The notes below the pieces were generated by a model. That model saw only the letters and a program-made list of their open reading frames with translations. It searched no databases and had not been told where the DNA came from. The translations under genes were made by a program, and so were the position numbers. Below, piece by piece: positions 3,324 through 32,791 of a DNA stretch of 32,901 nucleotides; within the stretch, counting starts at the first letter, position 1, and each line of letters begins with the position of its first letter. Source of the DNA: an uncultured bacterium (GTDB taxonomy: Bacteria > Patescibacteriota > Gracilibacteria > Absconditabacterales > Absconditicoccaceae); assembly GCA_903918675.1 (NCBI GenBank), contig CAIXFE010000005.1, positions 1 to 32,901 of the forward strand. The letters are read 5' to 3'.

Positions 3324-4001
3324 CTAGTCACTAGTCACCAGACACTCGTCACTATATTTATCCAATAACAACTTCAGCTTCTCCGCATCTTGATCATTCA
3401 TACCGATTTTCATTTGTTCATAGATATGATTGAAATATCACTGGATCACAAGTTTCTGCGCCTGCTGAGGGGTCAATCCCCTGCTGGTCATGTATAATAA
3501 TTTTTCGCTATCTATCCTTTCTATCTTAGCTCCATGATTTGCTTGGACATCGTTGGATGCGACGCTTAACATAGGCTTGGCTTGGATGTGAATATGGTCG
3601 CCCAAAATAATATTCTCCTGTAAGAGTCCCGCGATAACCTTTGTCGTCCCGGGAGCGATCGCGATATCTCCATTCACTTCAATTGCACTTTCATCTTGGA
3701 AGAAACTGATCAGATGCACATGAGCCTGAGTCTGAGAATGGTCTATCTGGACCTGGATATCAGCCTGAGTTTTTTTTCCCAGAAAAATACCAAATATCTG
3801 GATATCACTTCAGGATCCGACCGTCTTCACGGAGATCCTACTACGTGCGTCTGTCCCCACGACCAAATATTTCAGCATACTTTTTTCTCCGACAAGAATT
3901 TCTCTATTAGCAGAAATATCTGCATATTGATCGATCAGAATATCCTGAGAATGCCTGGGTATTTTCGTGGTACCTATTTTATTGCGGAAGAAATGAGTCA
4001 T
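3324..4001 (-). CDS. Short SufB/SufD-family protein (Fe-S cluster assembly scaffold)
   Basis: The 225-residue protein contains the beta-helical core of the SufBD family: a repetitive beta-strand region (NREILVGEKSMLKYLVVG), then PMLSVASNDVQANHGAKIERID, which matches the conserved DVxAxHG segment, and LLYMTSRGLTPQQAQKLVIQGYF, the usual C-terminal helix pair. Typical SufB or SufD proteins have over 400 residues, so the N-terminal part is missing. SufBD scaffolds act with the ATPase SufC, which is not visible here. Gly residues at 3810 and near 3436 are UGA. The final ten residues translate a repeat (AGTGACTAG-like), so the end may have drifted. The family is clear; whether it is SufB-like or SufD-like is not. 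Confidence 0.85.
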
Positions 4002-4103: not shown

Positions 4104-4616
4104 CTATTTATTCAATTCGTGTCTTCTGATAAGATTGAGTAATTCTGTCTTCGATGTCCCTGTATCTGAAGGATTTGCTGTAGTCGAAGTATCTGCTGGA
4201 GAAGTTGCGGATGTTTCATCTGCGCCCGTAAATCCGAATGAAGTATCTCCTGTCAATTCGCTTCCCGTCATATTATTGAGATCATTCTCCAGGCTAGGAT
4301 CATAAGCGTTGAGTCCTGTATCTGTCGAGCCACTGATTGCATCACCACTGAGCAATGCTCCACTCAAGAGATCTCCGGAAAGTTCTCCTCAACTCAATGA
4401 CAAGGAGCCACTGCCTCGGAAAACGTAACCCAATGATGCGGGTCTTGTAATAGTTACTTGTCCTCGTGCATCGCTTCGATCTCTCGTATTGAGAAAATTT
4501 ATATAATTGCTAAAGTTAAAATTAAATTTTGCCCAGCCGATCAAAAGCATGCCTACAATGAAGACAAGAAGGACTCGCAAAATATATTTCAAAATCTTTC
4601 CAAAAAGCGAATGCAT
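4104..4616 (-). CDS. Single-pass membrane protein with Ser/Thr/Asp-rich tail, unknown
   Basis: The protein has 170 residues. A membrane helix at about residues 8-27 (ILRVLLVFIVGMLLIGWA) follows a short basic N-terminus, so the rest probably lies outside the cytoplasm. The outer part is low complexity: runs of SGS, LLSGALLSG, and many Thr, Ser, Asp and Pro residues. It ends with a small charged segment (LLNLIRRHELNK). One UGA glycine at 4389 joins the two halves. It is the first gene of the leftward run that ends in dnaA, and it starts downstream of the candidate promoter at 4648-4675. I do not recognise a family. Confidence 0.7.
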
Positions 4617-4825: not shown

Positions 4826-5935
4826 ATGAAAAAGTTTCTGATTTCATTGATTGGTAGTGTTGCTTTGTTCGGCGGATTTTTTGCCGTCGTTTCTGCTCAT
4901 ACCAATAATGACTGTAGAGATGTAGAATTTAATAATGGCACTGTCTGTGTCGCGATGAATCAAACGAGCAACAATCACTTCGAGCTTCAGACTGATAACT
5001 CTGTCGGGACGATGAGATGTGACCTCCTTCTGCCTGACAATAGCCTTAGAAGCATCTCCTCATGTAACGGCTCATTTACCTACAATGGACAGAATACAGG
5101 AAAATTTAAACTGTATATCAGATCCAACGAGAATGCACCTACAGATCGAGATGGCAAACCAAGCAGCAACAGTCAACGAACCTATCCTCAATGGATGTAT
5201 GATTTTGACAATGGTGAATTTACCGATAGTGTAAATAACAACAACAATAATAACAATAATTCCAATGGTGACTTAGATAATTTCTATCTCACTACGGATG
5301 ATTCTTCTCCCTCTACCTATCAATATGTTGATCTCAACATTAAGGCTAGAGATAGCAGCAATAGTACGCTTACTGATTTCTCTGATACCGTAAAATTTAA
5401 AGTCTATTATGGAAACGCAGACAATTCTTCTTGGACATTAACTACTTCTTCTAGTTACTATGCTATGGCCTCTAACTACAATACCTACGGCTATAACTTC
5501 GATTCCTCTGACAATGGATATGCTCAGATCAGCAATGCTATTGAATTCAAAAATACCAACTACGATTACAAAGTTAGAGTGTACGATGAGAATGACACTT
5601 CTATCTACAAAGATATTATCTTCTATGTGAATGGTAATGGGAATGGGAATGGGAATGGGAATAATAACAATAATAGCAGTTCCGTAGATGGCTTTACCTC
5701 TACCGAGCTCAGCACCGTACAATCTATGTATGATGCTTGGCCTTCGATGATTACCAATCTTAAAAACACTTATTCAATATTGAGAAATAGCACTGCACGG
5801 AAAAATAGATCTGACACCTTCTATGATGCTATGAAAGATATCCTAGATGATGTCTCTAGTAGGACCTATGATACTTACGATAGCTACTATGCAGGCTTCT
5901 TATCTCGATATAATTATACGATCAGTATCAGATAA
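4826..5935 (+). CDS. Secreted Asn/Ser/Tyr-rich protein without UGA codons
   Basis: The protein has 369 residues. A classical signal peptide is present: MKK, a hydrophobic core LISLIGSVALFGGFFAVV, then SAH. The mature protein has an N-terminal Cys-containing region (residues about 25-80), a poly-Asn linker at about 138-147, a beta-rich middle region (YLTTDDSSPSTYQYVDLNI, like an Ig-type or DUF domain), a second (NG)n/Asn linker at about 271-285 and a helical C-terminal domain of about 80 residues. None of its 21 glycines is encoded by UGA, unlike almost all neighbours of similar size, and the frame is open in the standard code. It is followed by a strong terminator. It is probably an abundant surface or exported protein; no family is recognised. 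Confidence 0.9.
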   Translation: MKKFLISLIGSVALFGGFFAVVSAHTNNDCRDVEFNNGTVCVAMNQTSNNHFELQTDNSVGTMRCDLLLPDNSLRSISSCNGSFTYNGQNTGKFKLYIRSNENAPTDRDGKPSSNSQRTYPQWMYDFDNGEFTDSVNNNNNNNNNSNGDLDNFYLTTDDSSPSTYQYVDLNIKARDSSNSTLTDFSDTVKFKVYYGNADNSSWTLTTSSSYYAMASNYNTYGYNFDSSDNGYAQISNAIEFKNTNYDYKVRVYDENDTSIYKDIIFYVNGNGNGNGNGNNNNNSSSVDGFTSTELSTVQSMYDAWPSMITNLKNTYSILRNSTARKNRSDTFYDAMKDILDDVSSRTYDTYDSYYAGFLSRYNYTISIR

Positions 5936-6085: not shown

Positions 6086-7219
6086 ATGAAGAAGAAATGA
6101 TTCACTCTCCTGGAGATACTGATTTCGGTCACGATCTTTTTTATCTTGCTGGTCGTGGTTCTTTGATTGTATACTAGGATGATAAGGCTCAAATACAATA
6201 TCCAAGCGAGACAATCTTTGGTAGAAAATTCATACAATGCGATGGAAAAGATCAATTTATTACTCAAAGATTATACGATAGACTATGAAGAATATTTCAA
6301 TAGGCAAGAAGTCTGATGCAATGGGACTGCCTGATCATGATTTACGCGGGATGTCGGGACTGGAGGATACTGTGCAAATTTTTCTGCATATGGGAATGAT
6401 AATTATCTTGCCGATGGAACGCATAAAATATATTATTGCAGTTCCATAGGATTATTGAATGAACCTTGAGTAATAGCCTGAGCTGATGTACAAAATGGGA
6501 ATGGTTGTGCTCAGACAGGATACCAATCCTTTGGTGAATATTATCGGCAATTTCGAGATGTCAAAAATGATGTAGATAGTATCTCTGGAGCCGTAGGCGA
6601 TGAAGATGATCAAGATGTACTGAAATGACCTGCCGCTATCAGCGATGCCACTGGCGTGCAAGAATTGTATTTGATTTCTCAAGATGGAAAACAGAGAGTC
6701 TACCTAAGAAGAGCCTTGATAGAAAGCGGGGACTGGAATAAGGATGGCATAACGTGAAATGTGGCCAGCGATAATTTATATACCCTACAAATTTTGAAGC
6801 TCAGAGGATTTGATGCAGGGACACATCATGATTTCGATCCAGTAAATTCTTCTGGAGTCTATGATGGGAATATCGATACTCGAGCCTGTGATTACGCGCA
6901 AGGATTTATCTGTCAGGGAAGTGGCGTCAGCGCACTCTATTCATGATATGCACTGCCTGCTGATAGTAACGATGGACGAGTAAACCTCTTCGACCAAGAT
7001 CTGACAGTAAGCAATCGAAACCTCGTGATCTCTCCTACCAAAAATCCTGATTACGCGTTAGCTCAAGACGAAGTGCAGATCAATCCCTACTTTACGATCT
7101 CATTGACGAATAGTTTATATGGAAAAATATGGTACAAAAAACTCTGACTGCCGTCGTTGGATGACTTCCAATTGAGCTTGCAGACGAGTTTTTCTACGAA
7201 AGGATGGTATACGAAGTAG
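6086..7219 (+). CDS. Type IV prepilin-like protein (minor pilin or pseudopilin)
   Basis: The protein has 377 residues. The N-terminus MKKKG-FTLLEILISVTIFF is a class III signal: prepilin peptidase cuts after the Gly and the next Phe is methylated, with Glu at +5. That Gly is encoded by TGA at 6098-6100, direct support for the glycine reading. The hydrophobic helix runs to about residue 27. The globular part is large (about 340 residues) and contains several Cys residues (CNG, GYC, YYCSS, GCAQ, RACDYAQGFIC), so disulphides are likely outside the cell. Length and position suggest a PilW/PulJ-like minor component rather than a major pilin. No assembly genes are in the window. It ends at TAG, followed by CTAAG repeats. 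Confidence 0.88.
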
Positions 7220-22051: not shown

Positions 22052-23548
22052 CTACTTAAATTTAAATCAAAGCTTTATCCTCTCTAGCCAATGCAATTCT
22101 GGCAATGGTAAACTATACTTCTTGAGGAAGTCGTACTCCATCGGAACAATTTTATAGTAATTTCCTTTATCATCTTTGATGACCTTTTTTAATATTTCTG
22201 GATTGATCTCTCGCTTGCCATCGAAAGTAAATCTTTGGTACGATGCAAGGTCCTTGGTAGAAATAACTTCTGCCGATGGAGAAATATCTGTACTTATCAC
22301 TCCATCTCTTCGGAGATATCCGGCTTTTGTTGCTTCCTCCTTCGTGAACGAATCGTCGATAAGATACGCAGCCGTATCGTTGAAGTAGAAGGGACACATC
22401 CATCACGGAAAGAACGATCACAAAATTCAGTCCTTCTCCATGTGAGTAAAAATCTCATCCGCTTTGGCATATCGCGCATCCTTCTCATACTGCTTATTGA
22501 AGATACAGTACGATTTATTTTTGAGGCCGATACAGCCCAAGCAATAGGAACAGCTCACCAAATAATAAGAATAGAAAATATGCGAGCACTGCTCTATCCC
22601 CGATGAACAGTAATAATTATCTCCGTGAGTGCCTCATCATTCTACGGCATAGAGATTGTTACTGTCCAATCACGTATCGAAGCAATCATAAAAATGATGG
22701 ACCGTTCCGGTACCACTGGTATACATCACGTTATGTCAGTTTTCAAGGTGATCAATAGAATACCCATTGATGACGTTCTTGGAGAAGGCGACATAATTTC
22801 ATTCGCAGTTTACAGAGTTGAGATTTTTGCCTTTGAGATCGACGTGAGCATAATATCATTCGAAAAGTAATGGATCGCTATATTTCTCCGCTTTGATCTT
22901 GAGAAATTCTTCTTTGGAATAGGGCGTATTCTCTATATAATAAGAACTATTTTCTAAGTCCGCGCAAGCAATGCAATTGTGGCATCAGACACAATTAGAA
23001 CAAAATCGCAGATCAGAAGAATTGATGATATATCTGGAGTAAAAAATATTCATAGAGTTATTTACGCATGAAGACTGGAAAATGTTGCTGGAGTTGTCAG
23101 TGACCAAATTGGATGAAATGATATTCACACAGTTGGTGACGATACAGAAAGAATACAGCACATTTTCACAATTCTCGATAATCACAGAACTTAGATAGGC
23201 ATTTTTGGATGCTAAAGAGGTATCTGCATACTCACAGGACTCATTACCTCACTGGTCCAACAGTTGTCCCAAAGGGACTTTCTTTCGCAATGTTGAGAAA
23301 TTTTCGAAAAAAGATTGACTGGTCGCCGGCTCAATACTATACTCCGTCAAAGAGTCTCTGACGGCATTGAAATCTTTAGGAGATAATAACTTGGGTGATC
23401 TGTCTGATGCAGGATATCTAGAAACGAATCATTGATTTTTATTGAATCACAAAGGCATCCGACTCGCAATTTCCTGAAGGTATTCACGGAAAGGAGTTTG
23501 TCTACGTCTGGCCTGTATTTTCTCTTTTCGGACCTGGAGATCTTGCAT
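22052..23548 (-). CDS. Array paralogue A: Cys-module beta-helix-like protein
   Basis: The protein has 498 residues and is the leftmost of seven array copies. The shared plan is: a basic N-terminus (about 1-30); a YP-x-x-x-R motif near 47; a segment ending in FENF-x-x-L before a (T/S)ENC-like motif; an Asn/Ser ladder (about 110-185) with units such as SKNAYLSSVIIENCENVLYSF; a first CX2CX2CX8C module from residue 189; a second from 333; NPFYFNDT-like residues near 385; and the conserved C-terminus (448-498). In this copy the last Cys of module 1 is Tyr (SSYYIEN), and the position after FFPGGM is CPFYF. I see no signal peptide or membrane helix. The ladder suggests a beta-helix and the Cys modules suggest metal binding; both are inference. 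Confidence 0.9.
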
Positions 23549-23606
23549 TATCGATACTACAAAAAAACTAAAGCAATGGTCTATGCTTGAGTCTTTATAC
23601 TGTTTT

Positions 23607-25103
23607 TTACTTAAATTTGAATCCTAATTTTATTCTCTCCAATCGATGCAATTCTGGCAATGGTAGTCCATATTTCACGAGAAAATCATATTCCATCTTC
23701 ACAATTCTATAACAGTTGCCCTTCTCATCCTTAATGACTTTCTTGAGGATATTGGGATCGATCTCTCGGTTTCCATTGAATCCGATTCTTTGAAAGTTGC
23801 TGAGCTCTTTGATCCTTACCACTTCTGCTCAAGCAGGGATATCTGTAGCCATGGCCTCATCACGCCAAAGGTATCATTCCTTCGTCACCTCTTCTTTGGT
23901 GAATGAATCATCAATAAGATATGCTGCCGTATCGTTAAAATAATAAGGATTCATAGAACCAGGGAAGAAATCGCCAAGGACTCATTCCTGGTCCATCTGA
24001 GCGAAAATTTTATCTGCTAACTCATGTCGCTCTTCTTTGGAGTATTCTTTATTTAGTATGCAGAACTGTTTGTTCTTCAATCCCACACATCATAGACAAT
24101 AAGAGCAATTTTCTAAGAAGTAAGAATAATAACAGTTAGTACAAGTCCCCATATAATCTGAGCTATAAAGATTGCTTCATTCTCCAGAATTCACTACATT
24201 ATAGGCCTTATCCAAACGTGGGGCACCGAGCGTAACGCCGTTCACTACCTCACTATTCCCGTTGATACTGCCAGACAAAAAAATATTTTGGCTGTCTCTC
24301 ATTCTGTATGCATAGAGACCATCTTGTACATTTTGTGATTCAATGAAAAAATGTCCCGTCACGTTTTTACTGATAATAAACTCATTGGTCTTGGTCTCAT
24401 CATATCGTTGCATGAATTGCTCTTTCTGCGCCAAGAATTCCTCTTTCTTGACGAGATATTCTTCTTTGGGATATGCTTGATTTTGGATGCAATAGGACTG
24501 ATTGAGGAGATTCGTACACAAAAGACAATCATGGCATCCGACCATATTTGAACTAAACCAGACATCACTGGAATTATTTACTAACCTGGAGTAAAAAATG
24601 TTGTACGAATTGAACACCGCAGTAGATCGATAAATATTCTGACAATTGTTTCGGACCATGATGCTATTGAGCACATTTCTACAACTCTCTTTGGTCTCGA
24701 GAGAATACATAATATTCTCACAATTAAGGCCTGCTCCGACGCAGAGATAGCCGTTTTTCAGTCATCGAAACGCTCATTCTGCATAATCGGAATTTTCATA
24801 GGGAGGAAATGCTCTGATCGCAATTTTGGGAATCTCATGAAAAAAGTTCCCGAAATTTTCCCGAAAGCTTTTGCTGAAATCATAATCTCTCCCATAGTCG
24901 GTCAGCCCATCCCTTTCTTGTTCATATACTTTGGGTGGTTTAATTATTCAGCGTCTGGGAGTATCAGGATAGATGCTAATCCCTTCCGGATATCTATAAA
25001 AATTCATTGGCTCCCGAGAGCAAAGCCTTTGGACGAATTGACGAAACGTGAACGATTTCGCTCTTTCTTTCATCTTGGCTTCTCGGATATGGATGTCTTG
25101 CAT
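23607..25103 (-). CDS. Array paralogue B
   Basis: The protein has 498 residues, equal in length to A and C. Module 1 is GCHDCLLCTNLLNQSYCIQN, module 2 NCSYCLGCVGLKNKQFCILN; all eight Cys are present. The ladder is particularly regular (CRNVLNSIMVRNNCQNIYRS, FNSYNIFYSRLVNNSSDVWF). The N-terminal part YGRDYDFSKSFRENFGNFF matches, from memory, the DFDFN-x-x-FFEQF pattern of Cys-rich proteins widespread in candidate-phyla genomes that have no known function. Only 58 bases separate its stop from the start of A, so A and B may be co-transcribed. Confidence 0.9.
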
Positions 25104-25138
25104 GAACGTGTTGCGGGATAAAGGATTGTCTTGAATTT

Positions 25139-25275
25139 GAGTTGGAATTTCGCCCTATAGGGCTGTAATGGCGCTTCGCTGTAATTAATTGTAATTACGT
25201 GAGCTCACGCGAACAAATTACTAATTACGCCTGCCTGCCGGTAGGCAGGTCCGTTAGGACTAATTACGATTCCTT
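25139..25275. repeat. AATTAC repeat with a CCTGCCTGCCGG palindrome between B and C
   Basis: TAATTACG units alternate with GTGAGCTCACGC and the palindrome CCTGCCTGCCGGTAGGCAGG (25228-25247), then GTCCGTTAGGACTAATTACG. The last part resembles 9480-9515 in front of lysS. Confidence 0.8.
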
Positions 25276-26772
25276 CTATTTTAATTTAAATCACAACTTA
25301 ATTCTATCTAGCCAATGCAATTCCGGCAATGGTAATCCATGTTTCACTAAAAAGTCATATTCCATTTTCACAATTCTATAACAATTCCCTTTAGAATCCT
25401 TGACTACTTTTTTCAATATTTCTGGATTGATAGTTCGTTCTCACTTTTCGTCAAATCCTTGATATCCGGCCAAGTCTTTGGTAGTAAGGACATCCGCTCA
25501 AGCTGGGATATCCGCTTTGATCTCATCCTCACGTCGAAGAAAGCCAGCTTTTATTACTTCTTCTTTACTGAAGTCTCCTACGAGATACGCTACGGTATCA
25601 TTGAAGTAAAAAGGGTTGAGCGATGCAGGGAAGAATTGGCCTAAGTTGCCATCTTGCTCCATCTGAGCGAAGATTTTATCTGCCAATGCAAATCGTTCTT
25701 CCTTGGGATATTCTTTGTTGAGGATACAAAATTCTTTATTTTTAAGCCCGATACAGCCAATACAATAATTGCAGTTTTCTAGGAATCTGCAGTAATACGC
25801 ATTGCTACATGTCGCGATACCATCGCAGTTGTAGAGATTATCTGACTTCACTCCTGCATCCAATGTTCCATAGAAATCTGAATTCCCATGTGCTCCTGCC
25901 TCGAAGACATCATACATATGTTCGTTGAGCTTGGATCACCCTACGACCAGGAGATTTTTTGCATCTTTCATTTCCAAGCTATAATACCCATTTTCTACAT
26001 CTTGAGATTTAAGCAGGAAGCTCCCTGTCACGTCTGTACTTCCATAATTCTTCCCTTCATATTTTACCTGAGCATAAAAATCGGCGTACATCTTTTTTTG
26101 ATCAAGGACCTCCTTCGCTTTTTTGAGATATTCATCTTTTTCGTATTTCTTATTTTTGATGCAGTAAGATTCATTCTCCATATCGTCACACATGATGCAG
26201 TGATGGCATCCCACCATATTACTGCAAAATCGGATATCAGATGAGTTCTGGATAAATCTAGAATAAAAGACATTTGTAGAATTTATGATTCACAGACACA
26301 TATACACATTTTGACAATAATTCCGCACCTGAGAAGAATTGAGCACGTCAGAACAATGTTCCTTTACCGTGAACCCATAAAGAACGTTTTCACAATCAGT
26401 AATGATAGAAAACGATAGATAGCAATTTTTGGACATATAGGCTCAGAAAGCAAAGTCGCAATTTTCGGTGCCACTCCGATTGAGCAATGCTGACAAAGGC
26501 GTCGTATCATATAGTTTTTTGAAATTATCAAAAAAATTAATTCAGAAATCATAATCCAATCCGTGGTCCGTATATGATGACCTATTTTCTTCAAATTCCC
26601 TCGTGGTTACCACTGGGCATGCCCTTTCTGTCTCAGGATAGATAGAAAGAAGATTCTGATTTTTATAAATCATTAGTGGGAATCGGCTTACCACTTCCTG
26701 CAGAAATGTCTTGTACTCATGGGCTTTTTTTATTGCCTTGATCTTGTCTTGTCGGGGTTGAAGTGTTGGCAT
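25276..26772 (-). CDS. Array paralogue C
   Basis: The protein has 498 residues. Module 1 GCHHCIMCDDMENESYCIKN starts at Cys189 and module 2 NCNYCIGCIGLKNKEFCILN at Cys334; all eight Cys are intact. The N-terminus starts MPTLQPRQDK rather than M(Q/P)DIK, but the following residues SIYPETERACPVVTTREFEENR fit the shared pattern, including YTDHGLDYDFGINFFDNFKKL with a UGA glycine. In the second half, DSKGNCYRIVKMEYDFLVKH closes the fold. The stop is TAG. The start is the ATG that lines up with the other copies; an upstream frame extends to 26814 but reads repeat sequence. Confidence 0.9.
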
Positions 26773-26808
26773 GGAAGGGATTAAAAGATTAAAAGATTTT
26801 GAAGATTG

Positions 26809-26878
26809 TGTCATTCTGAGCGAAGGCGAAGAATATAATTTGTTTACTTATATCCTTCACTAATCGTTCAGGATGACA
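26809..26878. repeat. TGTCATTCTGAGCGAAG palindromic element between C and D
   Basis: Inverted ends TGTCATTCTGAGCGAAGGCG and GTTCAGGATGACA with GAAGAATATA/TATATCCTTC inside. Its end is five bases from the stop codon of D, the same junction as seen between D and E. Confidence 0.88.
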
Positions 26879-26882
26879 GCCA

Positions 26883-28376
26883 TTATTTGAACTTAAACCC
26901 TAACTTAATTCTATCCAACCAATGCAATTCAGGCAATGGCAATCAATGTTTCATCAGGAAATCATATTCCATCTTCACTATTCTGTAACAATTTCCTTTC
27001 TCATCCTTGATCACTTTTTTCAATATCTCAGGATTGATTTCTCGAGCACCACTGGGGGCAAACATTTGGAATTTACTGAGGTCTTTGACACTTAAAACTT
27101 CCGAGCCTTCAGGAATATCGGTCGTGATAGCATCATCTCTCCAGAGGAATCATTCTTTCATGACCTCTTCCTTCGTAAATGAATCATCGATCAAATAGGC
27201 CGCTGTATCATTGAAATAGAAGGGATTAAGCTCGGCAGGAAAAGCATCTCATAAAATTCCATCGGTTTCCATTTTTTCGAAGATCTTGTTCGCCAAGGCA
27301 AATCGCTCTTCCTTGGGATACTCCTTATTTAATATGCAAAACTCCCTATTTTTCAATCCGATACACCCTAGACAATACGAACAGTTCTCTAGAAACAGAC
27401 AATAATAAATATTTGATCCGGGAGAAACTCGATGTGAGTTATACACATTTTGACAGTATCCTACAGAGAATGAACCATAGACATCGGTCTCTGCGGGAGT
27501 ATTTGTGAAACAATCATAGACACGCTCTGCTGGTTCTTTTCCTCAGACAAGAATGACGTTTCTCCCCTCGTTGATTTGAGCATTGTAGTAGCCATCTTGG
27601 ATATTGGCGCAGTTGATATTGTAGGTCCCGGTGACATCGTGGCTCGCAATATTATTTCATAGATTGGAAAGTTTGAGGTATCGTCAGAGAAACTGATCTT
27701 TTTGTCTGAGCAGTTCTTGCTTTTTTTGCAGGTAGTCTTCTTTGGCGTATACCTTGTTTTCTATGCAATAGGATTGGTTATCAAGATTGTTACAGAAGAT
27801 GCATTCTGAGCATCCTGTGAGATTGTCTGAAAATCGGATATTGGATGAATTGAGGATGTGCTTGGAATAGAAAATATTATACGATTTGATAATTCACTTG
27901 GAGAAATAAATATTTTCACAATTATCCCAGACCATAAATGAATTGAGCACATTTATGGAATGCTCCTTGATACTGAGGGAGTATAAAATATTTTCACAAT
28001 CGCGGATCACGACATAGCTGAGATATCAATTTCTGATACTCAAGGTCTGATCTGTAAAGTTTGCATTTTCACATTCACCGAAAAGAATCGTCGCTGGGAA
28101 ATGAACCCCCTGCATCAAGACCTTAATATTTTCGAAAAAAGATTTAGATGCGTCATACTCCAATCCACTCGCCGTCAATGCATCTCTCCCTTCTTCAAAC
28201 TGCTTATGTGAAACCACTCCTCAGACTCTTCCTGTATCTGGGAAGATGGTCGTCATTCAACTATTTTTATAAAATCCCAAAGCACGCCGAGAAGCTATGG
28301 TTTTGATGAACTCACGGAAGGGAGTATTTTTCCTCTTCTCTTGCATTTTGAGTTCTCGTTGTTTGATATCGGGCAT
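26883..28376 (-). CDS. Array paralogue D
   Basis: The protein has 497 residues. It begins MPDIKQRELKMQEKRK, almost the same as copy E, and continues FREFIKTIASRRALGFYKNS. Module 1 GCSECIFCNNLDNQSYCIEN and module 2 NCSYCLGCIGLKNREFCILN have all Cys. The ladder segment reads CENILYSLSIKEHSINVLNS and DNCENIYFSKGIIKSYNIFYSKHI. Several TGA glycines lie in the middle region, which in the standard code leaves this copy with no single long frame. The leader (ACTTCAATCCC) has no purine-rich ribosome site. Confidence 0.9.
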
Positions 28377-28429
28377 GGGATTGAAGTTAATGTTAAATGT
28401 TGAGTTCTAAGTGTTGAGTATTCTACTTG

Positions 28430-28532
28430 TGTCATTCTGTGATTATATGTCATCCTGAGCAAGGCCGAAGGATATAAGTAAACCAATTATATTCTTCACT
28501 CCGTTCAGAATGACAAACAATAAGGATGACAG
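28430..28532. repeat. Nested TGTCATTC palindromic elements between D and E
   Basis: An inner copy (TGTCATCCTGAGC ... GTTCAGAATGACA, about 28448-28515) lies inside the ends of an outer copy (TGTCATTCTG at 28430, GGATGACA at 28525-28532). The outer end is next to the stop codon of E. Confidence 0.8.
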
Positions 28533-28535
28533 CGA

Positions 28536-30041
28536 TTATTTGAATTTAAACCCTAATTTAATTCTCTCTAATCGATGTAATTCTGGCAATGGCAAACAAT
28601 ATTTCACTAAGAAATCATATTCCATTTTCACTATCCTATAGTGATTTCACTGTGGATCTTCAATAACTTTCTTGAGAATATCGGGACTGATCATCCACTT
28701 CCCCTCAGCATCGAATCATTGATAATTCTTCAGATCTTTCACCTTGATCACATCGGATCCTGCTGGGATATCCGTAGCTATCGCCGCATCTCTTCGCAGA
28801 TACCCATCTTTAGCCACTTCTTCTCTCGTAAAAGAATCATCAAGAGCATAGGCTATAGTATCATTGAAATAGAAGGGCGTCATTCCTCCAGGAAAGAAAT
28901 CCCCCAATGTTCCGTCTTTCTCCATGGAAGCGAATATCTTATTTGCAAGATCAAATCGTTCTTCCTTGGAGTACTCTTTATTGAAAATACAGAAGGTCTT
29001 ATTCTTCAATCCTATACACCCCAAGCAGAAAGAGCAGGATTCCATGAAATAACTGTAGTAAATATTTGAGCTCGTTACGATCATAGCGGTATTGTAACAA
29101 GTATGGGAATAGGTCCCTGTATCAATGCAGTTGTAGAAATCATGAGCACTTGGAGATCAGATACTGAGACAATTATAGACTTCTTCATCTCATTCCTTAC
29201 CTCCTGCCATGATAATATTTCTACCTCCTTTCGTCTGATAGACATAACTACCACGCTCTATATCTTGTGATTTGATGACAAAAACTCCGTTGGACACATT
29301 CGTACTTGCATAATTTTGTGGAGTAGGAATTTTACTTTTATATACCTGCTCAAATAAATTTTTATTTTTTAAAATGTCTTCTTTTTTTTGCAAATATATA
29401 GCTTTAGTATATTGTTGGTTCTCTATACAATAGGATTTATTTTCCAATCAGTTACAGAAGATACAATCGTGACATCCGATCATATTAGTACAGAGCCGAA
29501 TATTTGATGAATCGGTAATATACCTGGAATAAAATACATTGAATGATTTTAATATCCCACAGCCCATATAAATATTTTCATTATTATCCCATACCATGAC
29601 GCTATTAAAAACATTTTTACTATTATCTTTTACGCTACAACTATAGATAGCATTCTCACAGTCAACTACGACAATATAGCTCAGATAACCATTCTTTGTT
29701 CCATTAGTATTATCTACATAGGCACAATTTTCATTCATTCCTGACTGCACGAGATTTGGCAGATCGATAGTTTTCAAAAGAGTATTGAAATTCTCGAAAA
29801 AAGGGGCATTAAAATCATATAACAATCCTTCCTTGGTAAGATCATCCCTATTCTTCTGAAATTCTTCCATCGAACAGATATGAGAAATTCTTTCTTGTGG
29901 AGGGTATCTTGATATGATTCCATCTGACCATTTATACAGCACTAAAGTTCTTCGTGCTCCCACCTTCTTGATGAAGTCACGATACCCATCTTTTTTAATC
30001 TTCTCTTGCATCTTAAGTTCTCGTTGTTTGATGTCGGGCAT
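28536..30041 (-). CDS. Array paralogue E, divergent from the TrmB-type gene
   Basis: The protein has 501 residues. The N-terminus MPDIKQRELKMQEKIKKDGY is nearly that of D, which points to recent duplication or gene conversion. Module 1 GCHDCIFCNGLENKSYCIEN has a UGA glycine after the third Cys; module 2 SCSFCLGCIGLKNKTFCIFN is complete. The ladder includes CENAIYSCSVKDNSKNVFNS and NENIYMGCGILKSFNVFYSRYI. The candidate promoter at 30160-30187 would give a leader of about 110 bases. It is the first gene of a five-gene run (E to A) that could be transcribed together. Confidence 0.9.
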
Positions 30042-30159
30042 TTGAATCAGTGAACAGTTAAAAACTAACAGTTAACCCCGTAGCTTCGTACGGGACAAGC
30101 AGTGATGGTATTTTTTTCTTCTATCTTGTGTCATGCATCATGTATCTTGCATCAAACTA

Positions 30160-30187
30160 TTTATATACAAATGCTCCACAAAGTCAA
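30160..30187 (-). promoter_or_regulatory. Candidate promoter of array gene E and the run behind it
   Basis: On the minus strand TTGACT, sixteen bases, TATAAA. Its -35 box lies only 22 bases from the -35 box of the divergent regulator promoter. Confidence 0.55.
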
Positions 30188-30209
30188 TTTATAGTCACTT
30201 TAACATTAT

Positions 30210-30237
30210 TTGACTTTAAAATAGAAATCAGTACTAT
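30210..30237 (+). promoter_or_regulatory. Candidate promoter of the TrmB-type regulator
   Basis: TTGACT, sixteen bases, TACTAT, with the ATG about 80 bases downstream. The spacing to the divergent promoter would let one bound regulator affect both. Confidence 0.45.
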
Positions 30238-30318
30238 ATAAGCGCAAATATTCATTGTTTCCGTGTCGAAATCGTTATAACATTTTACGTTACCAAATTT
30301 ACCCATTTTTCTCTCCCT

Positions 30319-31092
30319 ATGGCGAAAATCTACGAAGATCAAATTATTCTTCTCCTCAAAAGACTCTGATTGACTGATAATGAATGTCAGATCTTTATCT
30401 GTTCACTCAAGACCTGACCATCGACCGTTATCCAATTGGCGAAGTATACTCAGCTCAAAAGGATCACTGCTCATGCGGTCATCGAGAGACTTTTGGAGAA
30501 ATGATTGTTGCTCAAAACTTATAATAAAAAGAAAAGATTAATCTACCCCAACACCGTGGATTCCCTAGAGAGACTTCTGGAGAAAAAGAAATACGAGATC
30601 AAATCCCTGCAGGAAGACATCCAGAAAAACGAGCCAATCCTCAAAAGTATCCAGTCTCGAAGCAGAAACTTCCCTAAGGTCAGATTTTATAAAGGGAAAG
30701 AGTGAATCGACATTATGCTGAATGAAGTTATTCAGGATAAAGAAGATATGAACGTCATTAGCGATTCTCAGCACTTCAACGATCTCATCGATAATGATTT
30801 CTTGGAAAAATCTCTGGCTATCAGAAATAAATATCATCTCAATATCAAAATGATTTTCCCTAGTGGGTTTGAGCACTTCTGCTACACGCAGGGGACGTAC
30901 AAACAGAAACTAGATATCTGAACCTTACCCACGCAGGATATCCTTGTGGGCGGGATGACCGTTCGAGGGAAGAAAATTGCGTATCACTGTTATGAGCAAG
31001 GGTTTATCACTACGACCATTGTAGAAGATGATTCTATTTCAAATATCATGCGTTTCATGTTTCAGAATGTATGGATGAATGCAAAGAAATAA
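30319..31092 (+). CDS. TrmB-family transcription regulator
   Basis: The protein has 257 residues. The N-terminal winged helix is clear: LGLTDNECQIFICSLKTGPS, TVIQLAKYTQLKRITAHAVI and ERLLEKGLLLKTYNKKKRLIYP (about 15-80), with UGA glycines in RLGLT, KTGPS and EKGLL. A coiled coil follows (LERLLEKKKYEIKSLQEDIQ, about 84-115). The C-terminal effector-like part contains VRFYKGKEGIDIMLNEVIQDKEDMNVIS and a beta-rich end. TrmB proteins repress or activate genes for transport and metabolism. It is the only plus-strand gene in the array region, and its candidate promoter is divergent from array gene E, so it may control that gene. It has no UGA-free start problem; the ATG follows a C/T-rich leader. 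Confidence 0.88.
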
Positions 31093-31212
31093 GGTTGAGA
31101 ATTGAAGGACTTCGTCCTGTTGAGAGTTGAGGGTTGGGACATTGAAAAATGGCACTCTTACTAACTGATTCCGGACCAATAACCAATAACGAATAACCAA
31201 TAACGATTCTTC
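31093..31212. repeat. GTTGAG and CCAATAAC repeats between the regulator and array copy F
   Basis: GTTGAGAATTGAAGG-type units lie at 31093-31140, with a small hairpin AGGAC-TTC-GTCCT at 31106-31118, and CCAATAACGAATAACC units at 31170-31206. The two genes converge here and no T-run terminator is visible. Confidence 0.7.
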
Positions 31213-32712
31213 CTATTTAAACTTAAAACCTAATTTAATTCTTTCCAGCCAATGCAATTCCGGCAATGGTAAAGCATATTTTACAAGAAAATCATATTCC
31301 ATTTTCACTATACGATAATAATTTCATTTTTCATCACGAATCACCTTCTTTAGGATTTCTGGATCGATTCTCCGATTTCATTCTCCATCAAAGCACTGAT
31401 ATTTCTCCAAATCTCCAACTTTTATAATCTCCGAATCCCCTCCGATATCTGTTCTTATTTCATCATCTCTTCGTAAATATCCATCCTGTGTTACCTCGTC
31501 TTTAGTGAACGAATCATCTACTACGTAAGCAATCGTATCGTTGAAATAGAAGGGATTCATGCTAGCGGGGAAAAACGTTCACAAACTTCAGTCTGCATCC
31601 ATCTGTTTAAAGAGCTCATTTGCTAGTTCAAACCATTCTTCTTTGGAATATTCTTTGTTGAAAATAAAGAATTGTTTATTTTTGAGACCGATACATCAAA
31701 TACAATAGGACGAATTTTCACAGAACATACTGTAATACATTTTACTACATGTCCCACATTGGACACAACAATAGAGATTGTTACACATGCCACATCCTAT
31801 ACTACCATACAAGTCGTAGACCTCCCCCGATCATCATAATATGGAATCATAGATATTTTTAGCTCCCTTATCTGATGCAATCAAACAAATATTTTTACTA
31901 TCTTTCACATTAAGGAGATAGTGCCCGTTTTTGATATTTCCAGATTGAATGATACATGATCATATACTATTTTCGGAATTATAATTTTCAAAGGGAAGTA
32001 AAAGCATCTGTTGATAATATTGATTATATTTCTCTTTCGCATCCAAGAGTTCTTTTTTCATAGCTAGATATTCCGCTTGTGTGTAGTGTTGATTATTGAT
32101 ACAATACTGTTTATTCTCTAGATTATTACAGAGAAGACATTCTTTACATCAAGTCAGATTAGCGCTAAATCGGCAATCAGAACAATTGGAGATATTCTTG
32201 GAGAAGAATATTTTATAAGAATTAGTGACCGCGGAAGAACTATACACATTCTGAGAGTTCTGGACTACTAATACACTGTTGAGAATATCTGCCGATTTCT
32301 GCTTCACAGAGAGTGAATATAAGACATTCTCCGACTCTGTCGTGACGAAAAAGCTCAGATATACATTTTTGGAATCGTGGATAACGTCGCCGTATTTCGT
32401 ATTTTCACATCAGAAAAACTGATACGTGACAGGGAAAGTAAATTTAGCAAATAAAGAAGAGAATTGATCAATTACTGGTTGGCCTGTAATAGTTTGCCCA
32501 GATTTTTTGATAATATCTTCATATTGGTACATATATTCATCATTGGACACGAGGGAACTTATCCTGCCAATCATAGGATATCTAGATACCTCTCCACGAT
32601 AGGGATAAAAAGCAAAACTCACTCGGCTTCCAATCTCTTTTACAAAATCTCTCCAGGGAGTGGATTTACGCTTGGCTTGGATTTTGAGTTCTCGTTTCTT
32701 GATGTCTTGCAT
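31213..32712 (-). CDS. Array paralogue F, with a degenerate second Cys module
   Basis: The protein has 499 residues. Module 1 GCKECLLCNNLENKQYCINN is intact. Module 2 reads NSSYCIGCIGLKNKQFFIFN: the first Cys has become Ser and the last Phe, leaving two of four. The N-terminus is MQDIKKRELKIQAKRKSTPW. The ladder includes SKNVYLSFFVTTESENVLYS and SADILNSVLVVQNSQNVYSS. A Cys-rich insert (GCGMCNNLYCCVQCGTC) precedes module 2 and contains extra CxxC pairs not obvious in the other copies, which might compensate. The leader contains three 11-base repeats. Confidence 0.9.
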
Positions 32713-32758
32713 GGAATGAATTCAAAGATTAAATGATTTGGAAGACTGCAAATTTAAG

Positions 32759-32791
32759 CTACTGTTCAACTACTGTTTATCTACTGTTTAA
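32759..32791. repeat. Three tandem 11-base CTACTGTTNAA units
   Basis: CTACTGTTCAA, CTACTGTTTAT and CTACTGTTTAA follow one another between copies F and G, upstream of F. Confidence 0.88.

What the first reader, a model, noticed from the sequence alone, without database searches (positions are those of the whole stretch)
4826..5935. Secreted protein that avoids UGA completely
All 21 glycines of this 369-residue protein use GGN codons, including an (NG)5 linker, while neighbours of similar or smaller size use UGA freely (at least eight in the 220-residue vWA protein). Either very high expression selects against UGA, or the gene was acquired recently from an organism with the standard code.
Basis: seen in the sequence. 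Interest (0 to 1): 0.5.

Follow-up and report, generated by a model that had tools for sequence, protein, structure and literature searches.

The report
Native surface protein lacking UGA glycines
In a bacterium that reads the stop codon UGA as glycine, one secreted protein uses no UGA at all; the gene is native and long-inherited, and the gap is a modest bias of its family, partly explained by neighbouring codons and partly shared with ribosomal proteins, not a sign of recent import.

Summary
The gene (4826-5935, 369 aa) has 21 glycines and no in-frame TGA, while TGA is 25.9% of glycine codons in a 482-kb sample of the same SR1-type genome. Its strength is modest: naive probability 0.0018, 0.020 allowing for variation between genes, 0.016 given neighbouring residues; context-adjusted, the gene ranks 17 of 231.

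Recent import is rejected: 32 of 48 other genomes of its family carry a relative, mostly beside the same divergent neighbours.

Selection is partly supported. Over 19 genomes the family uses less TGA than expected (118 vs 163), most where ribosomal proteins also avoid TGA; in three TGA-rich genomes it uses slightly more. But the gene's other codons do not look ribosomal (rank 128 of 283).

The protein is a secreted Ig-like protein: signal peptide, 4-Cys domain, one Ig-like repeat (one to eight in relatives), Asn/Ser linkers, helical C-terminus. Four of its 'Arg' codons (CGA/CGG) are probably Trp.

The parts
4826..5935 (+). Gene of the finding: secreted Ig-like repeat protein, 369 aa, 21 Gly all GGN, 0 TGA; 4 CGA/CGG codons (residues 108, 118, 325, 361) probably Trp
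4826..4897 (+). Probable signal peptide (residues 1-24, ...VVSA-H), read by eye; no predictor was run
   Evidence: sequence reading
4898..5224 (+). N-terminal beta domain (about residues 25-133) with four cysteines
   Evidence: AlphaFold2 model, block pLDDT 59-70 over residues 31-100; alignment A3
5225..5278 (+). Asn-rich linker, (N)9SNGD, before the Ig-like domain
   Evidence: sequence; low pLDDT
5264..5635 (+). Ig-like beta-sandwich repeat unit (residues 147-270), one copy here, up to eight in relatives
   Evidence: repeat matches; fold matches Z 8-10
5630..5683 (+). (NG)5-N5-S3 linker; AAT-GGG unit expansion
   Evidence: sequence
5684..5932 (+). Conserved C-terminal domain (residues 287-369), three predicted helices
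   Evidence: profile search; low-to-moderate-confidence models
4104..4616 (-). Divergent neighbour, membrane protein (by eye) without a Pfam family; conserved synteny partner, match in 13 of 18 relatives
3324..4001 (-). SufBD-core-like protein, second conserved synteny partner, match in 16 of 18 relatives
6086..7219 (+). Downstream gene with a type IV prepilin N-methylation motif; found beside the homologue in four same-genus genomes (G004, G005, G007, G008)

Best explanation
This is a native, vertically inherited, usually single-copy gene of one family of SR1/Absconditabacteria. It encodes a secreted, probably surface-exposed protein: signal peptide, 4-Cys beta domain, Ig-like beta-sandwich repeat(s) on Asn/Ser-rich linkers, helical C-terminal domain; most likely a short stalk or adhesin of these presumed epibionts (function inferred, not shown). 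The lack of UGA has three layered causes. (1) Context: 15 of its 21 glycines follow Asn, Asp or Tyr and 14 of 21 follow a codon ending in T, where this genome uses UGA about half as often. (2) Mild selection against UGA in this gene family, shared with ribosomal proteins in several of the genomes where UGA is not the main glycine codon; inferred to reflect slower or less reliable decoding by the UGA-reading tRNA-Gly. (3) Chance, helped by copying one GGG unit in the NG linker.
For: Homologues at a conserved locus. Own genome: TGA share of Gly 13.8% after NNT versus 28-33% after other bases; expected TGA falls from 5.4 to 3.7 with neighbours. Across 19 genomes homologues have 118 TGA versus 163 expected, 16 of 19 below expectation, Wilcoxon p 0.005; counting only N-terminus plus first repeat, 79 versus 103.8, 14 of 19 negative, p 0.009; by gene-level beta-binomial without context, mean percentile 0.24, Stouffer z -3.8 (8 genomes of the genus -3.5, 11 others -2.0). 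Homologue observed/expected goes with that of r-proteins: rho 0.66, mean 0.62 with split backgrounds, 0.45 (two-sided p 0.056, one-sided permutation p 0.028) with wholly separate backgrounds. Own r-proteins (all 14 confirmed by Pfam) have 21 of 163 Gly as TGA versus 25.9% overall; EF-Tu 2 of 35. TGA-rich genomes G022, G036, G039: homologue above background (28 of 34, 14 of 23, 13 of 17), though none significantly in that call.
Against: The gene's other codons are not clearly ribosomal-like: CAI without Gly ranks 128 of 283 (an r-protein-versus-genome score ranks 64 of 283), and it uses GGC/GGG where r-proteins use GGA/GGT. With context and overdispersion the own-gene z is only -1.27, and the 19-genome total is z -2.8 rather than -4.8. 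In G004 and G007 the homologue is low although r-proteins are not; G021 and G041, also fairly TGA-rich, do not show an excess. No phylogenetic correction was made; 8 of the 19 genomes are one genus. Several homologues are incomplete because contigs end inside the gene.
Confidence: 0.55

Rival explanations
1. Very high expression alone selects UGA out of the gene: it would be one of the most abundant proteins of the cell, such as a surface-layer or fibre protein.
For: Shared depletion with r-proteins across genomes; G037, G005 and G019, whose r-proteins are among the most depleted, have homologues with 1 TGA in 34, 29 and 57 Gly; EF-Tu also low, 2 of 35.
Against: Codon usage outside glycine is average by CAI (rank 128 of 283) and only somewhat raised by the r-protein-versus-genome score (rank 64 of 283); Gly codons chosen (GGC, GGG) are not the r-protein ones; no expression data.
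Confidence: 0.25
2. Only context and chance: genes vary a lot in UGA share in this genome, and an Asn/Asp/Tyr-rich protein with T-ending codons is expected to have few UGA; zero is the low tail.
For: Beta-binomial model predicts about 2.9 zero-TGA genes of this size class among 209 others, 2 seen; P 0.020; context-adjusted rank 17 of 231.
Against: Homologues in other genomes are low in most cases after context adjustment, also when repeats are counted once (16 of 19 and 14 of 19).
Confidence: 0.2
3. Recent acquisition from a standard-code organism.
For: Absence of TGA itself; the genome does contain other zero-TGA ORFs that look out of place (L015:9127-10480).
Against: 32 of 48 other family genomes have relatives, neighbours match in 13 and 16 of 18 relatives, genome-typical GC, homologues in TGA-rich genomes full of TGA, and CGA/CGG codons at columns where relatives have Trp, as the SR1 code predicts.
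Confidence: 0.02

Closest known systems
Bacterial Ig-like-domain surface proteins / adhesins (e.g. FdeC 4e9l, InvE 5n40)
   Same: Secretion signal (by eye), beta-sandwich repeats in variable number; the repeat model aligns to FdeC at Z 9.8, rmsd 2.5 over 97 residues and InvE at Z 9.4, rmsd 3.6 over 117.
   Different: No Pfam Big-type Ig-like family in any of 14 family members at E up to 1, no PDB sequence match of the family profile at E up to 0.1; own 4-Cys N-domain and helical C-domain. Many unrelated beta-sandwich domains score as high (GH2 enzymes, complement C3/C5, macroglobulins), so it is a shared fold only.
SR1/Absconditabacteria code (UGA = Gly; CGA/CGG = Trp; Shulgina & Eddy 2021, PMC8629427, passages seen)
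   Same: UGA is frequent in frame in the same genome; own CGA/CGG codons align to Trp codons of relatives.
   Different: The passages seen give code assignments and overall codon usage, not gene-level or context-level avoidance of UGA.
Giant surface proteins of Vampirococcus lugosii (PMC8080830, passages seen)
   Same: An Absconditabacterium with many large surface proteins thought to attach to the host, some with PKD, DUF11 or fibronectin domains.
   Different: This protein is small here (369 aa; up to 1241 aa in relatives) and has no such Pfam match; homology to those proteins was not tested.

Membership tests
Bacterial Ig-like repeat surface protein | Ig-like beta-sandwich domain | tested here: met
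   AlphaFold2 model of residues 151-270, block pLDDT 70-86, with Z 9-10 to FdeC, InvE and other beta-sandwich domains. Model used table 25, i.e. Arg at the four CGA/CGG positions, all outside this domain.
Bacterial Ig-like repeat surface protein | Sequence match to a curated bacterial Ig-like family (Pfam) | tested here: not met
   0 of 14 members match such a family at E up to 1; the 17 families listed are scattered single-member matches
Bacterial Ig-like repeat surface protein | Tandem copies of the domain | tested here: met
   Met in the family, not in this copy: one repeat here and in G036 and G039, two to eight in the complete homologues elsewhere, e.g. eight matches in G019. A collapsed repeat in this draft assembly cannot be excluded.
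Bacterial Ig-like repeat surface protein | Export and display on the cell surface | not testable with these tools
   Signal peptide read by eye only; no localisation data
Highly expressed gene under codon selection | Glycine codon bias parallels that of ribosomal proteins of the same genome | tested here: inconclusive
   Avoidance of TGA parallels r-proteins across 19 genomes, but GGC/GGG are used where r-proteins use GGA/GGT
Highly expressed gene under codon selection | Other codons resemble ribosomal proteins | tested here: not met
   CAI without Gly rank 128 of 283, where the five r-proteins of at least 150 aa rank 5-27; r-protein-versus-genome score rank 64 of 283, r-proteins 7-34
Recently acquired gene | Absent from close relatives and from the conserved gene order | tested here: not met
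   Present in 7 of 8 other same-genus genomes; neighbours conserved
Recently acquired gene | Atypical base composition | tested here: not met
   GC 37.6% versus 37.7% in the genome sample
SR1 code with CGA/CGG = Trp | CGA/CGG align to Trp, not Arg, in homologues | tested here: met
   Over 95 own genes and 428 pairs: of 322 own CGA positions 103 align to TGG (Trp) and 147 to CGR; of 117 CGG, 48 and 44; Arg is not among the eight commonest partners of either, while AGA aligns to Arg in 2145 of 2763

The most novel reading that the evidence does not exclude
A reassigned sense codon is under translational selection whose direction flips between lineages: in SR1 genomes where UGA is a minor glycine codon it is purged from ribosomal proteins, EF-Tu and this surface protein, and in AT-rich lineages where UGA has become the main glycine codon the same surface protein prefers it. 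The protein would then be among the more abundant ones of these uncultured epibionts.
Probability: 0.3. Interest if true: 0.5.

Novelty: new member of a known kind. Interest (0 to 1): 0.3.

Why it matters
UGA=Gly in SR1 and Gracilibacteria is usually treated as a settled fact of the code. That its use differs between genes, follows ribosomal proteins in some genomes and depends on the preceding base suggests that the new codon is still not equivalent to GGN, which can be tested from genomes alone. It also corrects the reading of this protein: four apparent arginines are probably tryptophans.

Tried and rejected
Recent import: rejected. UGA avoidance as a general property of exported proteins: a crude N-terminal test gave TGA 23.4% versus 26.6% of Gly, too small. 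The first correlation of homologue and r-protein depletion (rho 0.58) shared a denominator, so it was redone with separate (0.45) and split (mean 0.62) backgrounds. The unadjusted signal of the 18 relatives (z -4.9) and the context-adjusted one of 19 genomes (z -4.8) shrink; the latter becomes -2.8 with overdispersion. tRNA supply: a search of the draft genome gave 41 matches, 39 over the cut-off; among these 39 places, examined with ARAGORN, the only Gly tRNA called was GCC, neither UCA nor UCC, so the draft is probably incomplete there and copy number could not be tested; the two sub-threshold matches were not examined. Pfam/NCBIfam for the whole protein: only sub-threshold, implausible matches. 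The C-terminal model alone was low-to-moderate confidence and was not fold-searched, so no statement on its fold is made. Promoter scan: 10 matches versus 6.7 expected, uninformative; the only terminator-like matches lay inside the gene. Papers: four searches (20 of 32, 15 of 34, 10 of 488 and 15 of 20 papers listed) showed no title or abstract start on gene-level UGA avoidance in SR1; only passages of PMC8629427, PMC4032931 and PMC8080830 were seen, so this is no evidence of absence. The CAI was computed with CGA/CGG counted as Arg.

Full report
OBSERVATION. The window is a whole contig (C5, 32,901 bases) of a draft genome of 1,390,329 bases in 123 contigs (contig length). Of seven named relatives, four are titled candidate division SR1 (Absconditabacteria) and three uncultured bacterium. 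The gene at 4826-5935 has 369 codons, 21 glycines and no TGA. I sampled 482,297 bases (35%) of the genome and called 340 genes with a simple codon-score caller: TGA is 2,103 of 8,127 glycine codons (25.9%). Three of 210 genes with at least 15 Gly have none: this one, ribosomal protein L6 (Pfam), and an ORF without a Pfam family in L015.

CONTEXT. In this genome the TGA share of Gly codons is 13.8% after a codon ending in T, versus 27.7-32.6% after other bases; for example GAT 7%, TAT 7%, AAT 12%, AAC 32%. Fifteen of this gene's 21 Gly follow Asn, Asp or Tyr and fourteen follow a codon ending in T. Expected TGA falls from 5.4 to 3.7. A control argues that the effect is not just T next to T: among N/D/Y/F/H codons the T-ending share is 0.50 before TGA (n 256), 0.66 before TGY, 0.61 before TGG and 0.71 before other T-starting codons. 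The raw share is lowest after T in 15 of 18 relatives, but the controlled comparison shows it clearly only in the same genus (0.59 before TGA versus 0.79 before TGY), not in relatives pooled (0.75 versus 0.78) or in the TGA-rich ones (0.81 versus 0.77). After context adjustment the gene ranks 17 of 231 in its genome.

FAMILY. A search of 99 genomes, own included, found the protein in 34: own, 32 of 48 others of the family, and 1 of 50 (E 0.008) in other families of the class. A profile of the C-terminal domain matched 32 of 49 family genomes, own included, in most of them once; two (G035, G047) only weakly. Neighbours are conserved: the divergent protein 4104-4616 has a match in 13 of the 18 relative genomes examined and the SufBD-like protein 3324-4001 in 16, mostly immediately beside the homologue; G019 and G021 have another neighbourhood, and G037 shares the downstream genes with the homologues of other genera. 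Relatives differ in the number of Ig-like repeats, from one (G036, G039) to eight (G019, 1,241 aa). The gene therefore is not a recent import.

SELECTION. For 18 relatives plus the own genome I compared the homologue, r-proteins of the S10-spc region (15 genes including SecY, 10 in G007; SecY left out of counts) and background genes. Unadjusted, the 18 homologues have 118 TGA versus 166.6 expected from flanks. By gene-level beta-binomial the mean percentile over 19 genomes is 0.24 (Stouffer z -3.8; genus -3.5, others -2.0). With a context model (898 background genes, 22,851 Gly), the 19 homologues have 118 versus 163.0, 16 of 19 below expectation, Stouffer z -4.8, or -2.8 after allowing for the gene-level overdispersion of 2.9. 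Counting only N-terminus and first repeat, to avoid copied codons, 79 versus 103.8, 14 of 19 negative. R-proteins in the same genomes have 853 versus 1,064.5. Homologue and r-protein depletion go together (rho 0.66; 0.70 with first repeat only and 0.62 on average with split backgrounds; 0.45, two-sided p 0.056, with separate backgrounds). In G022, G036 and G039, where TGA is 54-69% of flanking Gly codons, r-proteins are not depleted and the homologue lies above background, not significantly for any one of them against flanks (context z +2.9, +0.7 and +1.5, or +1.7, +0.4 and +0.8 with overdispersion). G021 (below) and G041 (level) are fairly TGA-rich and do not show this. Against expression as the sole cause: codons for other amino acids in this gene are average by CAI (rank 128 of 283) and rank 64 of 283 by an r-protein-versus-genome score, and G004 and G007 homologues are low without r-protein depletion. 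There is no phylogenetic correction, and gene calls in relatives are greedy long ORFs.

PROTEIN. AlphaFold2 with 16 rows gave mean pLDDT 60.6; the Ig-like domain (about 151-270) reached 70-86. VIA-align gives Z 9-10 to many beta-sandwich domains, including adhesins FdeC (Z 9.8, rmsd 2.5, 97 residues) and InvE (Z 9.4, rmsd 3.6, 117 residues), but GH2 enzymes and complement score equally; a shared fold says nothing of function. No Pfam Ig-like family of adhesin type and no PDB sequence match at E up to 0.1. The C-terminal 83 residues are predicted as three helices at mean pLDDT 67. A downstream prepilin-like gene (6086-7219, N-methylation motif) is kept beside the homologue in four same-genus genomes. 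A role as a surface stalk or adhesin is inferred from architecture and from the presumed epibiotic life of these bacteria (PMC8080830, passages).

GENETIC CODE. Shulgina & Eddy (PMC8629427, passages) predict CGA and CGG to be read as Trp in Absconditabacteria. In own genes CGA and CGG align mostly to Trp codons or CGR of relatives, and Arg is not among the eight commonest partners, so the table-25 reading of this protein is probably wrong at residues 108, 118, 325 and 361. The structure models used the table-25 letters.

Noticed in passing
window, all genes; gene residues 108, 118, 325, 361: CGA/CGG behave as Trp codons in this genome (CGA 103 of 322 and CGG 48 of 117 aligned to TGG; Arg not among the eight commonest partners), so table 25 alone mistranslates it. 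Already predicted for Absconditabacteria.
   Followed up: yes
own genome sample (L002-L021, L041-L060, window) and same genus: TGA (Gly) is avoided after codons ending in T: 13.8% versus 28-33% after other bases; the T-ending share of preceding N/D/Y/F/H codons is 0.50 before TGA and 0.66 before TGY. With this control clear only in this genus.
   Followed up: partly
r-protein loci L083-L100 and L015: Ribosomal proteins avoid TGA strongly in some SR1 genomes (G037 4 of 156, G005 14 of 162, G026 20 of 153) and not in others (G004, G006, G036, G039, G041).
   Followed up: partly
window 22052-32769, minus strand: Six similar-looking proteins of 497-518 aa, five in close succession and one after an intervening gene, with near-identical C-terminal sequence by eye; no Pfam family for the two tested, no PDB sequence match for the one tested.
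   Followed up: partly
window 30319-31092: A TrmB-type regulator on the plus strand lies between the fifth and sixth of these similar genes.
   Followed up: no
L015:9127-10480: Two adjacent ORFs without TGA, no Pfam match for the larger one, on the ribosomal-protein contig; candidates for foreign DNA or contamination.
   Followed up: partly
L188:254-365 (G000:C75:2053-2164): A tRNA-like match of 112 bases with an apparent insert, over the Rfam cut-off but not called by ARAGORN.
   Followed up: no
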